Shown one piece after another: positions 25,704-34,622 of a stretch of 35,572 bases of DNA (its first letter is position 1; the number at the start of each line of letters is the position of its first letter). This DNA comes from Gulosibacter hominis (GTDB lineage Bacteria > Actinomycetota > Actinomycetes > Actinomycetales > Microbacteriaceae): contig NZ_CAJGWQ010000019.1 in the NCBI RefSeq assembly GCF_904842695.1, positions 1 through 35,572 on the forward strand, given 5' to 3'. The position numbers and the translations under genes are program-made. The notes beneath the pieces were generated by a model. That model saw nothing but the letters and a program-made list of their open reading frames with translations. It was not told the DNA's origin and ran no database searches.

Positions 25704-26894
25704 TTAGCGACCGATCGGTTTCCCAGCCATCGTGTAGCTGAGATTGCAGTTCTCCCCGGTCGTGAGGTTTCCGCGGTATTCGAACTGCAGTTGATCGTTC
25801 TTGACCGAAATCAGCACCTGTTGAAAATCGAGGTCGGCCGGGTAGTCACGTTTACAAACCTCGCGCGCGTCGCTCACGACCTTGGGCAGGTTCTCCCAGC
25901 GCACATCGTCGATGCCGAAGGTGGTGCCGTCACTCAACTCGTTGTAGTTGGTGATGGTCATCTCGGTCCACGGTTCGAAGGTGCCGGGTAGGAACGCGCT
26001 ATCGCGACTGGTTCGCCAATCCTCAACTTTTCCGGCACGCTCGCTTGGCACATCAGCGCTGAGATTGTTGTCATTCAAGTACACCGCATAGAATTTGTCG
26101 CTGCCCGACCGGTCAAGAATGTCCTGTGCCCCCGCTCGAGCAATCACCGAAGATTCATACACGGTCGTGCTCAGCTCGCCCCGCTGCACGCGGTCAATCG
26201 TGTTGGCGATCGATCCCTGGCAGAGGAGTGCCATGATCGCGATCCCCGCGATGGCACCTACCCACAGCATGGGCCGCCTCAGCGGATGCGGTTTCGCTGC
26301 TTCCGGCACCTCCATCGACCGCCAGGACTTGCGCTTGACACCCGCCACCTTTGGCCCGTGGTAGGGAGCCGCATCGCCGTCGACATAGTCGCGTCGAACG
26401 GCCTCCCAAGCCTTCGGTTTGCGGTCGCTCTCGGGAATTGCTGCTGCATCCAGCTTGCCAGCATGGATCACACCGCCAGTCTCGGTATTCACCAGCTGCG
26501 CGCGAAACGCCATGCCACGCTGCCACACCCCGGCGTCCGTGATCGGGTCGAGTCTCTGATCGAACTGTGTGCGATACGGCGGCAGATCGGGCGGAAACAC
26601 CGTCGCGGTAATTCGATAGTTCCCGCGACCATCGTCTTCGGAATCGATGCGTTTCAGGCTATTCACGACGGCCGGGGCCACGAGCCGCTGTTCCCTGATC
26701 ATTCGGTATCGAACCAGGTCTTGGCCCCGCTGGGCGAGTGCCGCCAACCCGACAATCGCGGCGACCCCAGCAACAAAACCAATGCCGCCCATCAGCGCAG
26801 GGTCCCACTGCCCTTCGGCGATGGCAACCAGAGCGTAAGTGAGTGCAGCAGTACTCAAGCAGGACAGAATCAGCACGAGAATGATGCCAAGCAT
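25704..26894 (-). CDS. membrane protein with a DUF3592-like segment, CHAT-locus
   Basis: This is a 396-aa protein. Two N-terminal membrane helices (about residues 1-20 and 33-55) precede a cytoplasmic beta-rich segment (about 60-150) with the run RITATVFPPDLPPYRTQFDQ. I recognise that type of segment from actinobacterial DUF3592-like proteins. A third membrane helix lies near 205-230, followed by a soluble domain (about 235-396) that would be outside if the topology is in-out-in-out. The soluble domain has two cysteines (REVCKRDYP and GENCNLSY). The ATG at 26894 is preferred to the GTG at 26909 because AGAGG sits seven bases before it. It starts 36 bp after the CHAT gene stop on the same strand, so both are probably one transcript. 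Confidence 0.8.
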   Translation of the reverse strand: MLGIILVLILSCLSTAALTYALVAIAEGQWDPALMGGIGFVAGVAAIVGLAALAQRGQDLVRYRMIREQRLVAPAVVNSLKRIDSEDDGRGNYRITATVFPPDLPPYRTQFDQRLDPITDAGVWQRGMAFRAQLVNTETGGVIHAGKLDAAAIPESDRKPKAWEAVRRDYVDGDAAPYHGPKVAGVKRKSWRSMEVPEAAKPHPLRRPMLWVGAIAGIAIMALLCQGSIANTIDRVQRGELSTTVYESSVIARAGAQDILDRSGSDKFYAVYLNDNNLSADVPSERAGKVEDWRTSRDSAFLPGTFEPWTEMTITNYNELSDGTTFGIDDVRWENLPKVVSDAREVCKRDYPADLDFQQVLISVKNDQLQFEYRGNLTTGENCNLSYTMAGKPIGR

Positions 26895-26930
26895 GCGGCT
26901 ACCTCTCACAATCTTTCTTGTTGTTTGCGA

Positions 26931-28157
26931 TCAACACTGGCTGTCTGGCTCGGGGCCAGACAGGTCAAAACGGCGAGCGACGCCGCCTCCTCGGGTATAG
27001 GTAACCACTGATGCCCAAACCAGCGGTGAATCGCCACTATCGCCATGGGTATCCCAGGCCAGCAGCCGCTCGCGCTGCCAATCGCCCAGCGCAGTCACCG
27101 GATCACGGCTGTCGTGCGCGAGGTCTACCGCCAGCACGAGTTCGCGCAGGGGCTGACGGTCACTGGATGCACCGGCAAACAACGCCATCGCAGCGTTGGT
27201 TGGCAGCCGCCAGGAAGTTGCGGTGACGAGGTCAGCACCGCAGCTCAATGCCGCGAGCGTGAGCCCCATCGGCTCGAGGTCGCGCAGGTCACTCGCCGAG
27301 CCGCAGGCGATCAGTGCGCATCGCGCTGGGAATTGCCAGGCATCCCGCACGAGTTGCGCCGCGGTGACCGGCACGTGCGGCCCGGCACCGGCGAGATGGA
27401 GCGCCGCACCGGCGCCAGCATCCGCGTTTTCGCTGTTCGTGGCGTGACCTACATACAAGAACCGGGCCGCATCCGCCAGCTGCTCGCGCAACCAGCGCTC
27501 GTCAAGGTCTCGACGGCGCACCAGTTCCAAGTAGTTCTTGGCTTCGGGCCGCAACCGCACGCCGTGGCGCAGTAGCGCGGCGAGGGCGTCGTCTTGCTGC
27601 GGTCGGCCCAGCACTGAGCCGAGCGCCGAAGTTGGGGATGCGCCGGGCACCCGAGGATCGATAACGGCCACCACCGAGTCACCCCGATGGTTGATCGGTC
27701 GAGCTGAGGCGGCAAGGGATGCGGGTGGCGCAAACTCGAGGTCGGCCAGCTCGAGTAGCGGCTCGCGTTCAGGGCCGATTCGCAGCAGTGGCCAGGGCAC
27801 CCGCGCGGTGCTCGGTGAAACCTGGATGCGCAGCCGCGGCCGTGTGCCCCGCTCGCGTTCTGTGCGGAGCGCCCCCGCGATCTCGGCTGGGATGAGGCTG
27901 TCGCCGAGTCCGCCACCGAGCTGAAACGCGGTCTGGGGTTGCGCGAGCCAACCGGTGGTGAGTGCCCGCTCCAGTGCCGCGTCGCCGCTCTCGTCTGCCT
28001 GCGGTTCGGGCAGGCATTGTGTGAGGGCAGTCTGCACCTGTTCGAGGTATTGCGCATCAAGCTTGGCTGCTTCTGCTTGCGCCGGCACATCCTGCCAACG
28101 CCACGCCGAATACAGGGTGCCCGTCTCGGCGTATTTCAGCAGCAGCGTTCGCGCCAT
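26931..28157 (-). CDS. CHAT-domain (caspase-like) protease
   Basis: This is a 408-aa protein. The N-terminal half (1-155) has no known motif. The C-terminal part is a CHAT domain (about 160-390): the histidine lies in YVGHATNSE (His238), and the cysteine in LIACGSASD (Cys285), the canonical His/Cys dyad of clan CD peptidases. DLVTATSWRLPT follows as in the family. CHAT proteases act in the cytoplasm and are usually switched on by a partner; TPR-CHAT in type III-E CRISPR (craspase) and gasdermin-linked CHATs are the best-known cases. Here the TPR part is not fused but may be encoded by the divergent gene at 31394. The start has AGAGGA nine bases upstream. The substrate is unknown; neighbours may be substrates or partners. 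Confidence 0.9.
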   Translation of the reverse strand: MARTLLLKYAETGTLYSAWRWQDVPAQAEAAKLDAQYLEQVQTALTQCLPEPQADESGDAALERALTTGWLAQPQTAFQLGGGLGDSLIPAEIAGALRTERERGTRPRLRIQVSPSTARVPWPLLRIGPEREPLLELADLEFAPPASLAASARPINHRGDSVVAVIDPRVPGASPTSALGSVLGRPQQDDALAALLRHGVRLRPEAKNYLELVRRRDLDERWLREQLADAARFLYVGHATNSENADAGAGAALHLAGAGPHVPVTAAQLVRDAWQFPARCALIACGSASDLRDLEPMGLTLAALSCGADLVTATSWRLPTNAAMALFAGASSDRQPLRELVLAVDLAHDSRDPVTALGDWQRERLLAWDTHGDSGDSPLVWASVVTYTRGGGVARRFDLSGPEPDSQC

Positions 28158-28267
28158 GCCGGAATCCTCTCAAACAAAAGTGTCTTGCTACTGGAACTGG
28201 TGAGGGGCCCGCAGCACTTGCTCGGCCCCACACCTCCCCGTTCCCGTGGCTTTGCGCAGCCGGCCCG

Positions 28268-28813
28268 CTACGGGCAGGTGATGCTGAACTCGAATTCGGT
28301 CTCGGCCATCGAGGTCGGGTCGCTCATGTTTGCGGCCACGCCCTTACCGGTGATCGTGTAGGTGTTGCCGTCAACCTTCACCTCAGCCGAGCCCATCCCA
28401 GCACCTTCGGCATAGGCGATCGCGTTGCCCTCCGAGTCGACGACTCCCACTGAGACGACGGTCGGGTTGTCCTTGCCGCTCAGCACGGCGCCGAGACCAT
28501 CAGCGGTGGTCGCCGAGCCGCTGCCCGAGACGACGCCGAGTGCGTACTGGCCGCCCTGTTCTTGGCAGGCCACCACGGGGTCGTCGATGGTGATGTCGGT
28601 TCCCGAAACCTTGAGCGAGTACGAGCCGCCCGTCGAGCCCGAGCCGCTTGCTTCACCGCCGTCAGCTGCGGTGTCGGCGGAGGTGTCGGCCTGCGCGGTG
28701 TTTGCGGCTGCCTCGTCAGTGTCGGCGGCATTGTCGCCGGTCGCGCAGCCGGTAAGCGTGGCGATGCCGAGGAGTGCAACTGCGGTGAGCGAGAAAGTGG
28801 TCTTGCGGAACAT
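28268..28813 (-). CDS. LpqH-like lipoprotein
   Basis: This is a 181-aa lipoprotein. It has a basic N-region, a hydrophobic stretch and the lipobox LTGC with the acceptor Cys at 23. A long Asp/Ala/Thr/Gly/Ser-rich linker (about 25-65) is followed by a compact beta-rich domain (about 70-181) similar in outline to the LpqH (19-kDa antigen) family: V-D-G-type strands, CQEQGG, GNTYTITGKGVAAN and the terminal FEFSITCP. Two cysteines in the domain may form a disulfide. The start at 28813 is preceded by GGGAAG; the open frame upstream to 28867 has no signal peptide. It sits between the CHAT gene and the 353-aa gene, all on one strand, an unexpected place for a surface lipoprotein. Confidence 0.82.
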   Translation of the reverse strand: MFRKTTFSLTAVALLGIATLTGCATGDNAADTDEAAANTAQADTSADTAADGGEASGSGSTGGSYSLKVSGTDITIDDPVVACQEQGGQYALGVVSGSGSATTADGLGAVLSGKDNPTVVSVGVVDSEGNAIAYAEGAGMGSAEVKVDGNTYTITGKGVAANMSDPTSMAETEFEFSITCP

Positions 28814-28917
28814 TTTGGAGCTTCCCTTTCGTTGTTCAGAACCCCCGTTGAGTTCTGTTGCACTCAAGGTATGGCCCGGGTTTCCCTACCAATCACGAGT
28901 TTGACCGCAAGAAGTTT

Positions 28918-29979
28918 CTAGAAGTCTTCGGCGGCAGCTTGACGCTCAGCGGTAAGGGTGAGTTCGTCGTCTTGCACGAGCCGTGAGCGCGCATGGTCGC
29001 GCACCCGCTGGCGCAGCGCGGCATCTTCGTCGCCCTTGCCTACGGCACCCACCCGGATGCGCAGCTCGGCCCAGTCTTGGACCCAGATTTCCGCGGCACT
29101 CAAGTGCAGCGGCAGGTCGGCCCCGCCGCGGGCATCCAGGGTGCCGAGCACTTCCCCCGTGAGGTTAGTGCCGAGCTGCGCGGCCACCGGGATGCCGGTG
29201 GGATCGGCTCCAGGAAGGAGGTCGACAAGCACGTGCAGCACCGGATCGGGGCGCGCATCCACCGACCAGTGAATCGCCGATTCGCTGGCGTCGAATATGC
29301 CGGCGGGTACCCGCTGCCATTCCAAGGCTGCAGCCCCACTGGCAAGGACGTTGGCAGCCGTTTCTGCTTCAGCCGATGCCGCGAGCGCATAGTCAGCCCG
29401 CCGGCGCATCGCGGGTGCCGCCGCGGGGAACTCCCATTCGAGCGCCGCGAAGAGCCGCTCACCCAGCGTGCGCACCGACTCCTCGTCATCGTTGAGCAAC
29501 TGGGCAAATTCGTCGCGCGAGTGCGCCGCCAGCGCGATCTCGCGTTCACTGTCGAGTGCGTCACCGGCAAGTTCATCGAGGTCAATGCTCAGCGTCACGA
29601 TTTCAGCGGCAAGCACCGCATCATCGAGTGGGGCGATCCCCTCACGTTCACTTGTCGGCCACCAGGCCCGTGCCCACAGCGCGCGTCCGAGCCGTTGCAC
29701 TGCTGTGAGGGTCGCGTGATCAGGTGCCACCTCCAGCGATGTTTCGCCGTCGAGCAGCGCCAGGTGGGCAGCTTCACCAAAGAGCTGCCAGAACCAGTCG
29801 GCTTCAGCCGCATCCCGCACCGTGATCACCGGCAGCGCGCCGGCCTCGGCAGTCACCGGCCATTCAAGCAGGGCTCCGGGAAGCTCTACGCCCAGTCGTT
29901 CAGCTGCACCACCGAGCGGTGCCCCGTCAGCAGCGGCGAACTGCGCGAGGCCATCGAGTTCACGCCGCAACAATTGCAT
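28918..29979 (-). CDS. unknown 353-aa protein of the CHAT locus
   Basis: This soluble, strongly acidic protein has no signal peptide. It has two parts: an N-terminal part with alternating strands and helices (about 1-190) and a C-terminal part with WSVDARPDPVLHVLVDLLPGADP and further beta strands (about 215-330). It ends in an acidic helical tail. I see no catalytic motif. The ATG at 29979 lies inside the end of the 447-aa gene (20-bp overlap), so the two are translationally coupled and probably bind each other. It is followed by the lipoprotein and CHAT genes. It could be a substrate, regulator or effector of the CHAT protease; none of this is shown by the sequence. Confidence 0.78.
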   Translation of the reverse strand: MQLLRRELDGLAQFAAADGAPLGGAAERLGVELPGALLEWPVTAEAGALPVITVRDAAEADWFWQLFGEAAHLALLDGETSLEVAPDHATLTAVQRLGRALWARAWWPTSEREGIAPLDDAVLAAEIVTLSIDLDELAGDALDSEREIALAAHSRDEFAQLLNDDEESVRTLGERLFAALEWEFPAAAPAMRRRADYALAASAEAETAANVLASGAAALEWQRVPAGIFDASESAIHWSVDARPDPVLHVLVDLLPGADPTGIPVAAQLGTNLTGEVLGTLDARGGADLPLHLSAAEIWVQDWAELRIRVGAVGKGDEDAALRQRVRDHARSRLVQDDELTLTAERQAAAEDF

Positions 29980-31303
29980 CGTTCAGCTCCTCATCCTCAT
30001 CCCAGCTGCCGAATTGTTCGAGCGCCCGCCGCATCCGTTGGCGCTGATCGTGCAGGGTCGACCGCACGATGCCTTCCAGCAGGTCAGTGGCTTCATGTTC
30101 AAGGTCGAGACCGAGTTCCAACACATCCCGGCCGTGCAGCCGCGTCCACAATCGCCGCAGATAGTGCCGGGCAAAGTCCTGCAGATCGTCGACCACGGGT
30201 TCCTGTTCGGGATGCACGCCACGCCCCGAGTGCAGCGCGCGGCGCAGGTAGAGCACATAGGCCTCGTTGCGTGCCCGGGCAATGGTGTGGTGCAGGGCTT
30301 GTGGCGCTCCGGCATGCGTGGTCGACTCGAGCGGGCGCACCCAACCGGCCACGAGCATCCCGGCAACGAATGTGGCGGCGAGGTCGGTATCGCGCAGCCC
30401 GAAGGCTTCGCAGCTGCGTTCGAGTTCTTCATCGAGCAGCTCGCGATCCACTGGGAACCCGGAGGTCTGCAATCGTCGGATGGCAGCCCGTACGCGGCCC
30501 TCAATCGAGCGATCAAGCGCACCGGGATGCTCAACCTCAACCGTCAGCGCGGGTGCGGCGAGCGGTGATGTGCAGGTAACCGATTGCGCAGCCAAGTCGC
30601 TCTGGGCGGCGGCTGCGAACCGCTCGACAACCCGCGGCTGCACCCGCAGCGCGCCCCCGAGTTCCGCCGCGAGATGATCGCGCAGCATTGCCCAGCTTCG
30701 GCGAGCATCCCGGCTGCGTTCGGGTTCGCTCAGTACCGTTCGCGTTGCCGCAGCCAATTCGGTGAGCTGCTCGTCGGTCAGCGGAGCCGATTGTGCAATC
30801 GCCGCGTCCCATTCGCGCTGAAGTTCGGTTTCGAGCCGAGCCACCGTTTCGGAGGCATCGAACGCGGCCCGCAGCAGTTCTGCGTCGCCGCCAAGCGAAT
30901 GCACCTCGGCGAGCATTTCCCGGCAGTGTTCGGCCGCATCCACCCCTGGCTCGCCAAGCTGCGTGGCAAGTTCGAAGGCGCGGGGAAAGTACAGTTCCTG
31001 CGCGTTGCCTGCGGTGATGCGCTGGGCGCGACGCTGCGCCCGCAGCAGGTCGTACCATTGCGATGCCGACTCAAGTCGCTGCTGTGCCGCGGCGAGTAGC
31101 TCTCGGAGGCGCGCCATCTGCTCGGCATCGAGCACCGCACTACCAATTTCGGTGTTGATGCGTGGCTGCAACACGAGCGGATCGAGGAGACACTTCAGCG
31201 CACGGGCCAGCACTCGCCCCTCACGATTGGTGAAAGCAGGGGCGGCGATTTCGAGCTCGCGCCAGGCCAGGTTGATCGCCACACTGCGGGCGCACCGATC
31301 CAT
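29960..31303 (-). CDS. unknown 447-aa helical protein of the CHAT locus
   Basis: This soluble protein is almost entirely helical, with long Ala/Glu/Arg/Leu-rich runs (about 60-110 and 160-230) that look like coiled coils. A second helical region lies at 270-440. No known motif is present. The frame is open upstream to 32071, but that extension lies inside the oppositely oriented TPR gene; the ATG at 31303 is chosen because it has GGAGGAGGG eight bases upstream and a TAAGCT box before that. The stop overlaps the next start by 20 bases. The divergent gene at 31394 is the TPR protein, so the two transcripts start from one 90-bp region. A scaffold or partner role is likely from its shape only. 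Confidence 0.78.
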   Translation of the reverse strand: MDRCARSVAINLAWRELEIAAPAFTNREGRVLARALKCLLDPLVLQPRINTEIGSAVLDAEQMARLRELLAAAQQRLESASQWYDLLRAQRRAQRITAGNAQELYFPRAFELATQLGEPGVDAAEHCREMLAEVHSLGGDAELLRAAFDASETVARLETELQREWDAAIAQSAPLTDEQLTELAAATRTVLSEPERSRDARRSWAMLRDHLAAELGGALRVQPRVVERFAAAAQSDLAAQSVTCTSPLAAPALTVEVEHPGALDRSIEGRVRAAIRRLQTSGFPVDRELLDEELERSCEAFGLRDTDLAATFVAGMLVAGWVRPLESTTHAGAPQALHHTIARARNEAYVLYLRRALHSGRGVHPEQEPVVDDLQDFARHYLRRLWTRLHGRDVLELGLDLEHEATDLLEGIVRSTLHDQRQRMRRALEQFGSWDEDEELNDAIVAA

Positions 31304-31347
31304 GCGTGCCCTCCTCCGCGTCCTCGCACCTGTGGTCGTGACGAAAC

Positions 31348-31353
31348 AGCTTA
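31348..31353 (-). promoter_or_regulatory. -10 box of the 447-353-lipoprotein-CHAT transcript
   Basis: On the minus strand TAAGCT lies 44 bases before the ATG at 31303 and leaves room for the GGAGGAGGG ribosome site. On the plus strand the TPR gene has CAAACT ending seven bases before its ATG, a weak leaderless-type box. Confidence 0.35.
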
Positions 31354-31393
31354 GTCCAGGGAGTTTTCGTGGCGCTCTGCCAAACTGGTCGGC

Positions 31394-32935
31394 ATGTTGC
31401 GCTTTGATGCCGCCGCGAACCGAGCGCGCGAACAGCTCGAACTTGCCGCCACCCAATTGGCGGTGGGAAACCCGGCGTGGCAGACCGCCTTTGCTGGGGC
31501 CGTACAGGCTGCCAATAGCTGCACCGACGAGGCGTCCCGCGATGATGCAGCCATTCGCATCCATCAATTCGCACATCATCTTGACCTCAATGGTGGCGAT
31601 TCCGAAACGGCACTCGCTCGACTCAATGAGGCACTCCTGTTGATCGAGCGACAGCGCCAACGCGGCGACGACACGACGCGGAACAACGACCACCGCTGGT
31701 CGGCGCTGACCGCGCGCTGTCGAGTGCATCAGGTGCGCGGAGATCTCGACAGCGCTGCCACCGACGCCGCCGCGGCCCTGCAACTCGCCCCGGAAACCTG
31801 CGAACCCGAGCATCGTACCGCCGCCGGGATGCTCTCGCTCGGCGCCATCGAGATACTGCGGGGCAACTATGCGGACTCGGTGCAGCACTATCGGCGAGCG
31901 GTGGATGCGAGCCGCGCGGTACCGAGCCTGCTGCCCGAATCGGTGCTCGGGCTGGCGCAGGCACAGGCTCGTCTCGGCCAGCTCGACGAGGCGAGCCTGT
32001 CGCTCGACCGATTCGAAGCGCTGCTGGCTAACGCGGGCGAGAACATTGACCTGCGCGCCAAGCTGCTGCAATTGCGCAGCTTTATTGCGAATGCGCAGCA
32101 GCGCCGGGTGGGGTCGAGGCTAGCTCCGGCCGCGGCAAGCAGCCAGACTGCTCGTGATGCTCATCGTGAGTACTCCGATCATGTTGCTCGCTTTGGTGCG
32201 CATCTCGAGCAGGCGCATCGATCTGCTGCCGCAGCTGCGCGCGGCATGGCGTATCACTCCGAAACCGATCTCCGAGCTGCCCGACGTGAAGCCGAACAGG
32301 CGCTGCAACAGAGTGCGGCTGCGGGCGACCAGCCAGGTCAGGCCTATGCCCTGATGCAGCTCGCAGTGATCCAGCAAGACACCGCCAGATTCACGGGTGA
32401 CAAGCGTCACCACGATGCCGCACTCGCGCGGCTCGAGCAGGCAAGTGAGTTGGCGGTCCGCATCAACCAGCCGCTCTATGCCGCCGGTCTCGATACCGAA
32501 CATGCGCGCTATATCACCCAGTGGCACGGCACCAACAACTACCTCGAGTTGCCGCTGCTTTCTGCGGCGCTCCGCCGCGCGACTCGGGCAGCTGTCTACC
32601 TGCACCTACGCAGTTTCGATGGTTCGCTCGCATCCGAACGGCGTAGCTACGCCGCGCAGTATGCCGCCGATGCGTTCGAGGTTGCCGCGCAGCTTGCGTT
32701 CGGCACGGGCAATAAGCGCCTGGTGGCCGAGTTGGTTGAGCTGCGCGCGAGCGGGGCCGTGTTCAGCAGCGGCATCGTCATGCCGACGACACCCAATGCG
32801 GCGGAGTTGCTGGCCACGGAGCCGCCGCCGCTGCTGTTTGCCCCGGGTGAGGTTGCACTCGCCTCGGCCCTGGCAGATGCGAGTGCAACCTACGGGATGT
32901 CGACAGACGAACGCGCCCCCATCCCCACCTGGTAG
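31394..32935 (+). CDS. TPR-type helical protein, probable partner of the CHAT protease
   Basis: This is a 513-aa cytoplasmic protein built of helix pairs. Repeat-like blocks are seen at about 40-75 (AAIRIHQFAHHLDLNGGDSE), 105-140 (RCRVHQVRGDLDSAATDAAA), 145-180 (GAIEILRGNYADSVQHYRRA) and 185-215 (GLAQAQARLGQLDEASLSLD), typical of TPR spacing near 35-40. Blocks 295-360 (ALMQLAVIQQDT) and 370-445 continue the solenoid. The C-terminal stretch, with FGTGNKRLVAELVELRASG, matches the linker that joins TPR and CHAT halves in fused actinobacterial proteins I know. It has no CHAT of its own. The ATG is preceded by CAAACT at seven bases rather than by a Shine-Dalgarno. It may hold or sense for the CHAT protease encoded on the other strand. 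Confidence 0.85.
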   Translation: MLRFDAAANRAREQLELAATQLAVGNPAWQTAFAGAVQAANSCTDEASRDDAAIRIHQFAHHLDLNGGDSETALARLNEALLLIERQRQRGDDTTRNNDHRWSALTARCRVHQVRGDLDSAATDAAAALQLAPETCEPEHRTAAGMLSLGAIEILRGNYADSVQHYRRAVDASRAVPSLLPESVLGLAQAQARLGQLDEASLSLDRFEALLANAGENIDLRAKLLQLRSFIANAQQRRVGSRLAPAAASSQTARDAHREYSDHVARFGAHLEQAHRSAAAAARGMAYHSETDLRAARREAEQALQQSAAAGDQPGQAYALMQLAVIQQDTARFTGDKRHHDAALARLEQASELAVRINQPLYAAGLDTEHARYITQWHGTNNYLELPLLSAALRRATRAAVYLHLRSFDGSLASERRSYAAQYAADAFEVAAQLAFGTGNKRLVAELVELRASGAVFSSGIVMPTTPNAAELLATEPPPLLFAPGEVALASALADASATYGMSTDERAPIPTW

Positions 32936-32944
32936 CCGACCTCG

Positions 32945-34078
32945 CTACAGCACGGGCGGGCCCTTTGGCCCCCATTCGACGTCCTCATGTGCGTCTTCGG
33001 GAAGCGGATGCGCGCGTCGATACGACACTCGAATCGCGCGCCGGCGACGGAACTCGTATCCTTCCTCGGGTGTGGTGTAGCGCATCGACCAGCGTTGCTC
33101 GATACACACCGACTGCTGCTGCCGCATCACCGACAACGCTTCCTCATGCAGGCCCACGAGCGAGAGCCCGTAAGCGAACATGTCCCACAGAGAGATGGCA
33201 CGAATACCACCCTCGTATTTGCCTGCGAAACGTTCGAATGCGGTCCACACGACATGCACGCCGTGGTCGGTTTGCCACACCGCCTTGTCGGCGTCCGTCG
33301 TAGAAAGCTCGCCGAACGTCCACAGCGTGTTCCAGTGCTGATTGAGTGCATAGACGGCCTCAGCAAGCACCGGATGGCCCTCCGGTGCATTCTCGGCAAT
33401 ATACAGGGCGATCTGCGGAAGGATCGTCGTGTCACCCGACCACCGAGCATCCACTTGACGGATGAGGTTGTTCCACCCCATGGGGTTCCACGGGTCAATC
33501 GCCTGCCATTTCTTGGCGTGTTCAAGCGAGCTTTCAGTGCCGCCGCCCACAGTTGCGCCGTGGCCGAGGATGTAAGCGAATGGGTCGGTGTAGTTGCTGA
33601 GTTTCGCCGACTGCTCCATCAAGTCGCGCGCCCGTTCGTTCCAACTCGCAAAACCAAGTTTGCCGGCATCGGTTACCTGGTCTGCGGTGCCGCTGCCGCG
33701 CTCGTCAAAGGCGCAACTCAGAGCAATATTCGAAGCCAGCATGAGGCTCGCAGCGGAGTTATGCCGCAGACAGCGTTCGAGGAGTTCACGTCGGGCCTGC
33801 TCCCCAATATCGTCGACGTACCACGTCGCCGCATTCAGCCACATCACTCGTTCCTCGCTGCTGGCGAGTGCCTGATAGAGCGCGTCATAGGCGCCCAGGT
33901 CGCCATTGCTCAGTGCCTCGCGCATTGGCGGAGCAATCGATTTCGCGAGGTCCTCGATGCTGACCACTGTCGGTTCTGGCTCGGCCGCGGTGAGCCGATC
34001 CATCTCGGCTTCGCGCGCGAGGTACTCGGGTGATTCTTCTGGTTCTTGTTTGCGGTTGCGCCGCCCAAAGAAAGCCAT
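32945..34078 (-). CDS. unknown 377-aa helical-repeat protein of the CHAT locus
   Basis: This soluble protein has an acidic, charged N-terminus (RRNRKQEPEE) and then helical repeats from about residue 60 to 330. The spacing and small residues (RRELLERCLRHNSAASLMLA, HAKKWQAIDPWNPMGWNNL) suggest TPR-like pairs, and the C-terminal 50 residues are Arg-rich and acidic in turn. Good GTCAGGAGTC precedes the ATG at 34078. It is convergent with the TPR gene, nine bases apart, and divergent from the DUF3592 gene. It has two WNPMGWNNL-like aromatic patches unusual for plain TPR. I do not recognise the family and can only place it in the locus by position. Confidence 0.75.
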   Translation of the reverse strand: MAFFGRRNRKQEPEESPEYLAREAEMDRLTAAEPEPTVVSIEDLAKSIAPPMREALSNGDLGAYDALYQALASSEERVMWLNAATWYVDDIGEQARRELLERCLRHNSAASLMLASNIALSCAFDERGSGTADQVTDAGKLGFASWNERARDLMEQSAKLSNYTDPFAYILGHGATVGGGTESSLEHAKKWQAIDPWNPMGWNNLIRQVDARWSGDTTILPQIALYIAENAPEGHPVLAEAVYALNQHWNTLWTFGELSTTDADKAVWQTDHGVHVVWTAFERFAGKYEGGIRAISLWDMFAYGLSLVGLHEEALSVMRQQQSVCIEQRWSMRYTTPEEGYEFRRRRAIRVSYRRAHPLPEDAHEDVEWGPKGPPVL

Positions 34079-34244
34079 GGTGACTCCTGACTATTGATAA
34101 TTAAACTGTGACTCATTGCGCGTGAATCTGCCAGGATGCTAAACCGTGAAAGTTGACCTGTGATTGGTAGTGATTTTGGGTCAATATGCTGCCCGCAGTT
34201 GCGAGGGTGACGGTACGCCTGAGCACCAAGGAATTGAGGGTTTG

Positions 34245-34622
34245 ATGGACTGGTTGCTGATCGCACTGGGTGTGATGACGGTTGGGATGAGCGCCATTTT
34301 CGCGGTGGCGTTCTTCCGGTTCCGGCGGTGGCATCCGACCGTGGGCCGGGTGGTGGCGAACATCGAGGACGAGTCGGGCGACAGGAGCAGGGTCTGGCGC
34401 CCCGTATTCAAGCTCGTCGATGAGTTTGGGGCCACACATTTTGCCACGGCGAACTACGCCAAGGCGCCGCCACACGAGATCGGCGATGCGGTTCCGCTGC
34501 GCTACAACCCCAACAACTCGTCACAGATTTCCACCGGGCAGGTGTGGGTGTTTGCGGCGGCAGCCGTCGCCTGTCTCATCACTGCTGCCGTGTTGATTCT
34601 CATCGGCATTCGGATGGATTAG
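34245..34622 (+). CDS. DUF3592-like membrane protein
   Basis: This 125-aa protein has two membrane helices at about residues 4-22 and 102-121, with a beta-rich domain between them. The core runs PTVGRVVANIE, WRPVFKLVDEFG, ATHFATANYAK and GDAVPLRYNPNNSSQI, the DUF3592 pattern. The orientation places the domain on one side of the membrane with both termini on the other. The ATG at 34245 has TTGAGGG before it; the open frame to 34164 has no ribosome site. A TATGCT box at 34185-34190 can serve as -10. It pairs in type with the 396-aa gene at 25704 on the opposite side of the CHAT locus. The function of the family is unknown. Confidence 0.82.
   Translation: MDWLLIALGVMTVGMSAIFAVAFFRFRRWHPTVGRVVANIEDESGDRSRVWRPVFKLVDEFGATHFATANYAKAPPHEIGDAVPLRYNPNNSSQISTGQVWVFAAAAVACLITAAVLILIGIRMD

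What the first reader, a model, noticed from the sequence alone, without database searches (positions are those of the whole stretch)
25704..34622. A split TPR/CHAT caspase-like protease locus with membrane and lipoprotein partners
The sequence shows a CHAT protease with His238 and Cys285, a TPR-type protein on the opposite strand whose C-terminus resembles the TPR-CHAT linker, two overlapping unknown genes, a lipoprotein, and DUF3592-like membrane proteins on both sides. Known CHAT systems (craspase, gasdermin-linked, separase-like) have other partners. The combination suggests a membrane-linked protease switch, possibly for stress or phage response. That function is inference.
Basis: partly seen in the sequence, partly recalled or inferred. 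Interest (0 to 1): 0.78.

Follow-up and report, generated by a model that had tools for sequence, protein, structure and literature searches.

The report
Five-gene CHAT protease module in actinobacteria
The window holds a compact block of five genes, built around a caspase-like protease split into two proteins, that stays together in many actinobacteria and includes two protein families with no recognised relatives; what it does is untested.

Summary
The locus is real and not a chance cluster. Five genes (TPR protein, p447, p353, LpqH-family lipoprotein, CHAT protease; window 26931-32935) form a conserved unit. Of 80 related loci kept from 423 confirmed in public genomes, 75 carry all five; the other five run into contig ends. 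Gene order differs between lineages, yet the core stays together. Four distant relatives encode TPR and CHAT in one frame, so 'split TPR/CHAT' is right. In Gulosibacter macacae exactly these five genes separate two genes that are adjacent in 8 of 10 congeners, the window's genome included; that excludes the window's DUF3592-type flanks. p447 and p353 have no significant match in Pfam, NCBIfam, PADLOC or PDB sequences and no detectable relation to CATRA proteins. A distant variant pairs CHAT with p447-like and p353-like genes and a kinase-TPR gene. Best reading: a regulated protease switch, probably stress- or conflict-responsive, with p447/p353 as regulator or substrate. That mechanism is inferred; structure prediction never ran because its queue was full in all 32 tries.

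The parts
31394..32935 (+). TPR protein, 513 aa, regulatory half of a split TPR-CHAT protease; ends ...PTW
   Evidence: TPR_12 E 3.7e-6; family profile aligns with mycobacterial TPR partners (hhalign E 7e-5, probability 63%), whose C-terminal region matches the pre-CHAT region of fused proteins; W-rich C-terminal tail in 71 of 78 homologues
31304..31393 (.). 90-nt gap between the divergent TPR and p447 genes, presumed control region
   Evidence: coordinates; promoter not tested
29960..31303 (-). p447, 447 aa, family without recognised relatives; conserved motif RLWxRLHGRDV near the C-terminus
   Evidence: best Pfam E among 64 members 0.0035, one member; no PDB sequence match at E <= 1; relatives in 35 of 394 class-sample genomes
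28918..29979 (-). p353, 353 aa, family without recognised relatives; overlaps p447 by 20 nt
   Evidence: best Pfam E among 64 members 0.019; best PDB E 0.56; found next to p447 in 80 of 80 loci
28268..28813 (-). LpqH-family lipoprotein with lipobox LTGC
   Evidence: PF05481 E 5.8e-22; PDB 7fds, 4zjm; in all 75 loci of the set that are not cut
26931..28157 (-). CHAT protease, 408 aa, catalytic His238 and Cys285
   Evidence: PF12770 39.1 bits, cut-off 24; His and Cys in 79 of 79
25704..26909 (-). 401-aa membrane protein; NOT part of the conserved module
   Evidence: no Pfam match; no tblastn hit beside the module in L006, L007 or L004; no link to the recurrent DUF3592-like family
34164..34622 (+). 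152-aa DUF3592 protein; NOT part of the conserved module
   Evidence: PF12158 27.2 bits, cut-off 25.3; only DUF3592 match in the genome; no tblastn hit beside the module in L006, L007 or L004
32945..34078 (-). 377-aa protein of unknown function, 9 nt from the TPR stop; NOT part of the module
   Evidence: no significant Pfam match; no tblastn hit in L006, L007 or L004

Best explanation
The five genes encode one proteolytic switch. Shown by comparative genomics: TPR, CHAT, p447 and p353 are kept together across actinobacteria, in mycobacteria and in the window's own layout together with an LpqH-family lipoprotein, and TPR and CHAT are two halves of what is one protein in some relatives. Inferred: the TPR protein docks on the CHAT enzyme and holds it inactive, as the TPR region controls the active site in Csx29. 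p447 and p353, whose genes overlap, form the partner that senses the trigger and/or is the substrate cut on activation. The lipoprotein links the switch to the cell envelope in lineages that have it. The switch most likely serves a facultative stress or conflict response rather than housekeeping, because it is missing from many close relatives.
For: Unit: all five genes in 75 of 80 loci, the rest cut by contig ends. Three gene orders keep the core together. In one sample of 394 genomes p447 occurs in 35 and this CHAT subfamily (over 170 bits) in 35, with 33 shared; by genus 7 of 8 each way (hypergeometric P 3e-43 by genome, 4e-10 by genus, relatedness not removed, threshold set after seeing the gap in scores). 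Five-gene insertion in G. macacae at a site uninterrupted in 8 of 10 congeners. Split enzyme: single-frame TPR-CHAT in L137, L139, L143, L144; an ATG or GTG in the CHAT frame overlaps the TPR stop in 70 of 74 same-strand pairs (TGA stops favour this). Active protease: His and Cys kept in 79 of 79. p447-p353: the p353 start my script chose overlaps the p447 stop in 67 of 80. Facultative: 4 of 11 genus genomes, 2 of 100 family genomes, 98 of 148 genomes of the mycobacterial genus, several copies broken. Exchangeable input: CHAT, p447-like and p353-like beside a kinase-TPR gene in L164. Model for control: Csx29, passages read in PMC10028731.
Against: No structure, interaction or cleavage evidence; structure prediction never ran. 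p447 and p353 could be enzymes, not regulator or substrate. The lipoprotein is not universal: none was detected near the module in 12 loci of a third layout (L136-L144, L174-L176). It should sit outside the membrane, whereas the window's CHAT, TPR, p447 and p353 show no hydrophobic stretch, so how they meet is unclear. Within mycobacteria the flanks fall into three main groups and are shared inside each, more like vertical inheritance than a fast-moving defence gene. The p447-like match in L164 is only moderate (hhalign probability 92%, E 7e-7). In the class sample two genomes have p447 fragments without this CHAT and two have this CHAT without a p447 match at that sensitivity; one further CHAT-TPR pair of the subfamily (L165) has no p447 or p353 beside it.
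Confidence: 0.5

Rival explanations
1. The module is an anti-phage (abortive-infection) system: phage infection activates the CHAT protease, which frees or activates a toxic partner and stops or kills the cell.
For: Accessory and gained or lost as a block. CHAT proteases serve immunity elsewhere (Craspase, passages in PMC10028731; CATRA, passage in PMC8195603). The L164 variant carries a 381-aa ORF that looks NYN-like by eye (no Pfam match), and its two signalling neighbours match PADLOC profiles: the kinase-TPR protein PD-T4-6 (1.3e-35) and mad6 (4.6e-32), the FHA/FtsK protein mad8 (6.6e-19, three short stretches). These may be only generic kinase and ATPase matches.
Against: No PADLOC match for CHAT, p447, p353 or the lipoprotein of the window, nor for the CHAT, p447-like, p353-like and 381-aa proteins of L164, the fused TPR-CHAT of L137 and one mycobacterial p447/p353 pair. 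No p447 relative in viral contigs. No recognisable toxin in the window module. Carried by 98 of 148 mycobacterial genomes with shared flanks inside groups. Enrichment in defence islands was not measured.
Confidence: 0.25
2. The protease acts on the envelope lipoprotein: the operon matures, sheds or turns over the LpqH-family protein, and the other genes assist.
For: The lipoprotein gene is in all 75 uncut loci of the set, in different positions.
Against: No lipoprotein detected in 12 layout-C loci that keep the other four genes. No membrane stretch in the window's CHAT, TPR, p447 or p353 by hydropathy, so they and the mature lipoprotein should lie on opposite sides of the membrane.
Confidence: 0.12
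3. The locus belongs to the CATRA ternary conflict systems.
For: CATRA is described as a caspase-dependent ternary system (passage in PMC8195603; the TPR part of its name is recalled); genes beside CATRA proteins match the CHAT profile weakly in 3 of 6 loci.
Against: No CATRA match among the families listed for p447 and p353, 64 members each, though CATRA-C (PF20270) is in the library. hhalign of CATRA proteins against p447 and p353: probability 0.5% and 0.2%. Six CATRA loci show no p447 and no lipoprotein match at E < 0.01; one 22-residue stretch in L160 matched p353 at 7e-4.
Confidence: 0.03
4. The genes are neighbours by chance.
For: The window's outer neighbours are indeed not conserved.
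Against: All the conservation evidence above.
Confidence: 0.01

Closest known systems
Csx29 (TPR-CHAT) of type III-E CRISPR, Craspase
   Same: TPR region followed by a CHAT protease with a His/Cys pair; works with dedicated partner genes (passages of PMC10028731)
   Different: No Cas gene among the module genes; the partners p447, p353 and LpqH-type lipoprotein are different; TPR and CHAT are separate genes here; no PDB chain matches the 4-sequence CHAT profile (E <= 0.1) or the 3-sequence TPR profile (E <= 0.01)
CATRA ternary conflict systems
   Same: A caspase-type peptidase with partner proteins; genes beside CATRA proteins match the CHAT profile weakly in 3 of 6 loci looked at
   Different: p447 and p353 show no relation to CATRA proteins; the one CATRA protein read out (L158) ends in long hydrophobic stretches by eye, the window's p447 and p353 have none
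EACC1-caspase membrane-associated two-gene system (Kaur et al. 2020)
   Same: A constant caspase-type peptidase tied to a second small component, suggested to work near the membrane (passages of PMC7159879)
   Different: Two genes, with variable domains fused after the caspase; here four or five separate genes and no such fusion in the window. The words CHAT and TCAD9 do not occur in that text
LpqH (19-kDa lipoprotein family)
   Same: The lipoprotein is a clear family member by sequence
   Different: None of my calls shows LpqH itself working with a protease; no paper in the library holds both 'CHAT domain' and Mycobacterium

Membership tests
CHAT protease family (PF12770) | Match to the CHAT profile over its curated cut-off | tested here: met
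   39.1 bits against 24
CHAT protease family (PF12770) | Conserved catalytic His and Cys | tested here: met
   79 of 79 aligned copies
CHAT protease family (PF12770) | Proteolytic activity | not testable with these tools
   needs an assay
TPR-CHAT (Csx29-like) | TPR and CHAT in one chain | tested here: not met
   separate divergent genes in the window; one frame only in relatives such as L137, L139, L143, L144
TPR-CHAT (Csx29-like) | Partnership with Cas7-11/gRAMP | tested here: not met
   no Cas gene among the module genes; one weak, partial gRAMP match of p447 (E 0.1, 10.4 bits against a cut-off of 800) taken as chance; the rest of the genome was not searched for CRISPR
CATRA system | CATRA-C domain (PF20270) or a detectable relative | tested here: not met
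CATRA system | CATRA-N and CATRASP domains (names recalled) | tested here: inconclusive
   no such match, but the presence of these models in the library was not checked
LpqH / Myco_19_kDa (PF05481) | Profile match over cut-off and lipobox | tested here: met
   78.7 bits against 23; LTGC in the window protein; my lipobox pattern in 66 of 75 module lipoproteins; of the 9 misses 5 have a start chosen too late by my script, 2 have LMAC, outside my pattern, and 2 are wrong frames
DUF3592 (PF12158) | Profile match over cut-off | tested here: inconclusive
   152-aa protein met (27.2 against 25.3 bits), 401-aa protein not met; recurrent protein beside p447 elsewhere: weak matches in 3 of 6 tested, none over cut-off
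Known anti-phage systems (PADLOC 2.0.0) | Profile match of a module protein | tested here: not met
   window: a generic TPR match (2.4e-5) and nothing for CHAT, p447, p353 or lipoprotein. In the L164 variant the kinase-TPR and FHA/FtsK proteins do match (PD-T4-6, mad6, mad8), its CHAT, p447-like and p353-like do not

The most novel reading that the evidence does not exclude
This is an undescribed class of bacterial caspase-type signalling system. Its constant core is a TPR regulator, a CHAT protease and two new protein families (p447, p353). Its inputs and outputs are exchangeable: an LpqH-family lipoprotein and a DUF3592-like protein in mycobacteria and relatives, and a Ser/Thr kinase fused to the TPR region plus a nuclease-like gene in one Microbacteriaceae genome. 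It would tie envelope or phospho-signals to regulated proteolysis in what are probably hundreds of actinobacterial species, two thirds of the sampled mycobacteria among them.
Probability: 0.45. Interest if true: 0.85.

Novelty: new variant of a known kind. Interest (0 to 1): 0.72.

Why it matters
CHAT proteases are bacterial kin of caspases and separases, and most of their partners and substrates are unknown (recalled). This unit supplies a defined set of four or five genes, two of them without any recognised relative. It occurs in 98 of 148 sampled mycobacterial genomes, in Streptomyces and Nocardia plasmid records (p447) and in several other families, and includes a relative of LpqH, a much studied mycobacterial lipoprotein whose cellular role is (as recalled) unsettled. 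The natural one-frame forms, the empty site and the kinase variant make it directly testable. In the library searched, no paper holds 'CHAT domain' together with Mycobacterium, and the two that hold it with Streptomyces are about fungi and picocyanobacteria (listing only).

Tried and rejected
Structure prediction of p447 (A7, 64 sequences) and p353 (A8, 64) was asked for in 32 calls (47, 48, 58, 62, 65, 69, 72, 74, 77, 79, 81, 86, 90, 93, 95, 98, 100, 104, 106, 108, 111, 113, 115, 117, 120, 122, 124, 127, 129, 130, 132, 133; A8 in 48, 124 and 132); the machine was full each time, so no fold comparison was possible.

A single-sequence scan with the CHAT protein in genome contigs gave no relative. 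A scan with the p447 alignment worked.

CATRA membership was tested and not supported. Homology of the window's 401-aa and 152-aa proteins to the recurrent DUF3592-like family was tested and not found; neither was that of a 279-aa antisense DUF3592-looking protein inside the Propionibacterium MAG module (L026, probability 0.8%). L177 was taken as a chance match: no CHAT and no p447 match at the place.

Plasmids: 6 of 72,556 records hold a p447 relative, five Streptomyces and one Nocardia; not followed up. Distance correlations between module proteins (Pearson 0.62-0.97) carry little weight, because relatedness of the species was not removed. The '79 of 80' is trivially high for TGA stops; I use the 67 of 80. 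My gene caller (GC3-based) is crude; start sites outside the window, the lengths of the one-frame TPR-CHAT proteins among them, are approximate. The 80 loci are the best-scoring of 423, and 72 of them are labelled mycobacterial, so they are not independent. The 97 loci include genomes fetched twice (L025 and L078 at least). Papers: searches returned long lists (20 of 111 and 25 of 7,063 shown) in which none of the papers shown holds a CHAT term, so they say little.
Full report
1. What is in the window. Five adjacent genes run from 26931 to 32935: a TPR protein on the + strand (31394-32935, 513 aa) and, divergent from it across a 90-nt gap, four genes on the - strand: p447 (31303-29960), p353 (29979-28918, overlapping p447 by 20 nt), a lipoprotein (28813-28268) and a CHAT protease (28157-26931). 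Pfam finds CHAT (39.1 bits, cut-off 24), the LpqH-type Myco_19_kDa domain (78.7 bits, cut-off 23) and TPR repeats just under cut-off; for p447 its best is E 0.09, for p353 nothing. NCBIfam gives nothing significant for the eight proteins asked, and PADLOC only a generic TPR match and one at E 0.04 for the 377-aa protein. This is the only CHAT match in the 2.34-Mb genome. Its surroundings look like ordinary chromosome (genes read by eye).

2. It is a unit. Of 11 genus genomes, 4 have this CHAT; of 100 family genomes, 2. Two of the three congeners that have it carry all five genes in the same order and orientation, at about 35-51% identity; in the third the contig is only 3.3 kb and shows lipoprotein and CHAT. 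The window's outer genes (401 aa, 377 aa, 152 aa) gave no hit there. In G. macacae the block lies between two genes that I read by eye as panE and truB, with gaps of about 35 and 70 nt. In 8 of the 10 other genus genomes, including the window's own, these two are neighbours. In the other two, a mutY-like gene lies next to truB and panE was not seen within the stretch held. So the five genes, and nothing else, were gained or lost as one block at that site.

3. It is widespread. A p447 profile scan of one genome per species gave 470 pattern matches, 423 confirmed relatives and 80 loci kept: 72 labelled Mycobacterium or Mycolicibacterium, two Gulosibacter, two Corynebacterium and one each of Propionibacterium (MAG), Williamsia, Nocardioides and Kitasatospora. 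Profiles of the five proteins found all five in 75 of 80; three lack only the lipoprotein, one lacks CHAT and lipoprotein, one lacks CHAT, TPR and lipoprotein. In all five of these the gene set runs into a contig end. Three orders occur: A, the window's; B, lipoprotein-TPR-CHAT-p447-p353 on one strand; C, p447-p353-TPR-CHAT. Of 78 loci with both TPR and CHAT, 74 have them on the same strand and 4 on opposite strands. Layout C was seen in nine fetched stretches from four families without a detected lipoprotein (L136-L144) and in two of genus g93 with a divergent lipoprotein (L022, L145). A search of 119 genomes of the genus of G703 with the p353-like protein of L164 added three more without a detected lipoprotein (L174-L176), besides G703 itself and one chance match.

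4. Specificity. In a class sample of 394 genomes, p447 was found in 35. The CHAT profile matched 52 of 394 at E <= 0.001; 35 of these score over 170 bits and the next genome 47 bits, so I take the 35 as this subfamily (a threshold set after seeing the gap). 33 genomes are shared. The two with only p447 (G527, G602) hold fragments with a stop. Of the two with only CHAT, one (G131) is a fragment of the profile's last part; the other (G703) proved to have diverged p447- and p353-like genes right after CHAT. By genus, 7 of 8 are shared each way. The chance probability is about 3e-43 by genome and 4e-10 by genus, with no correction for relatedness. One genome (G158) has, besides the full module, a second CHAT of this subfamily with a TPR gene but no p447 or p353 beside it (L165).

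5. Split enzyme. In L137, L139, L143 and L144, TPR and CHAT lie in one open frame (951-1202 aa by my start choice). The CHAT profile covers the C-terminal part and the TPR-partner profiles the part before it; in L137 and L139 the match of the TPR C-terminal region ends 8-10 residues before CHAT begins. Where the two are separate and co-directional, an ATG or GTG in the CHAT frame overlaps the TPR stop in 70 of 74. TPR partners end in a tryptophan-rich tail (mostly W-x-T-W-P) in 71 of 78; the window's ends PTW. This fits a TPR protein that works as a bound subunit of CHAT.

6. p447 and p353. Across 64 members each, Pfam shows only scattered matches in one to three members, best E 0.0035 and 0.019. 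NCBIfam shows none of significance in three further members of each. The PDB has no sequence match to p447 at E <= 1 and only marginal ones (E > 0.5) to p353. p447 keeps a run RLWxRLHGRDV near its C-terminus and many invariant arginines. The two are side by side in all 80 loci. Neither shows a hydrophobic stretch in the window.

7. A sixth, lineage-dependent gene. A protein family lies on the opposite strand beside the p447 start, or one gene away in L145, in 78 of 97 loci, some of them fetched twice. It has weak DUF3592 matches in 3 of 6 members tested, none over cut-off. It was not detected in layout A (window, L026-L028, L058, L095), nor in 13 others. The window's flanking proteins are not detectably related to it.

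8. A distant variant. In L164 (family of the window, genus of G703) a Ser/Thr kinase fused to TPR repeats (Pkinase E 1.7e-24) is divergent from CHAT, followed by p447-like (hhalign 92%, E 7e-7), p353-like (98%, E 1e-14) and a 381-aa ORF that looks NYN-like by eye but has no Pfam match. A 1449-aa FHA/FtsK protein lies beside them. PADLOC matches the kinase (PD-T4-6 1.3e-35, mad6 4.6e-32) and the FHA/FtsK protein (mad8 6.6e-19, in short stretches); these may be generic, but they lean towards a conflict role for that variant. The locus suggests exchangeable inputs and outputs around a constant core.

9. Distribution. In the mycobacterial genus, 98 of 148 genomes have p447, several only as pieces. 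Flanks of the layout-B loci (142 pieces) cluster into three main groups. So the module is dispensable, inherited within groups and at different places between them. No viral-contig relative was found; six plasmid records have p447 relatives.

10. How it most likely works. By analogy with Csx29, where partner binding acts through the TPR domain to align the CHAT active site and a partner protein is then cut (passages read, PMC10028731), I infer that TPR controls CHAT and that p447/p353 are sensor, inhibitor or substrate. The lipoprotein would connect the switch to the envelope where present. The unit and the split are shown; the control, the substrate and the purpose are inferred.

11. Known or new. 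It is not Craspase: no Cas partner is among its genes (one search's weak p447-gRAMP match, 10 bits against a cut-off of 800, is taken as noise). No tie to CATRA was found. Searches for 'CHAT domain' with Mycobacterium (0 papers), with Streptomyces (2 unrelated papers), 'CHAT domain-containing' with smegmatis (0) and pairs among LpqH, caspase-like, CHAT domain and DUF3592 (9 papers) show no description in the listings; two searches were too broad to tell. The paper that I recall as defining CATRA is not held, and subscription papers are mostly outside the library. The central enzyme is of a known kind and the partners are new families; I call it a new variant of a known kind.

Noticed in passing
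L164:1962-14511: A Microbacteriaceae variant puts a Ser/Thr kinase-TPR protein, CHAT, p447-like, p353-like and a NYN-looking ORF together, next to an FHA/FtsK protein; kinase and FHA/FtsK match PADLOC profiles (PD-T4-6, mad6, mad8).
   Followed up: partly
L165:8253-11876: In genus g93 a second TPR-CHAT pair, without p447 or p353 beside it, is followed by a phosphotransferase (APH) gene with a weak TCAD9 match.
   Followed up: partly
L020:10265-10699: A 144-aa ORF that looks like a PIN-domain (VapC-type) protein by eye lies between CHAT and p447 in one mycobacterial genome.
   Followed up: no
L026:5530-6366: An antisense membrane protein with a DUF3592-looking end (by eye) sits inside the module of a Propionibacterium MAG, between p353 and the lipoprotein; no profile link was found.
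   Followed up: partly
one search list (for example G883, G897, G893, G869, G946, G947): p447 is present only as pieces or remnants in several mycobacterial genomes, which suggests repeated loss of the module (some may be assembly breaks).
   Followed up: no
L046 and L062: The loci labelled Kitasatospora and Williamsia have nearly identical layout and matching flanks; one record may be contaminated or mislabelled.
   Followed up: no
window 32945-34078: A 377-aa protein of unknown function converges on the TPR gene 9 nt away and has no significant Pfam match.
   Followed up: no
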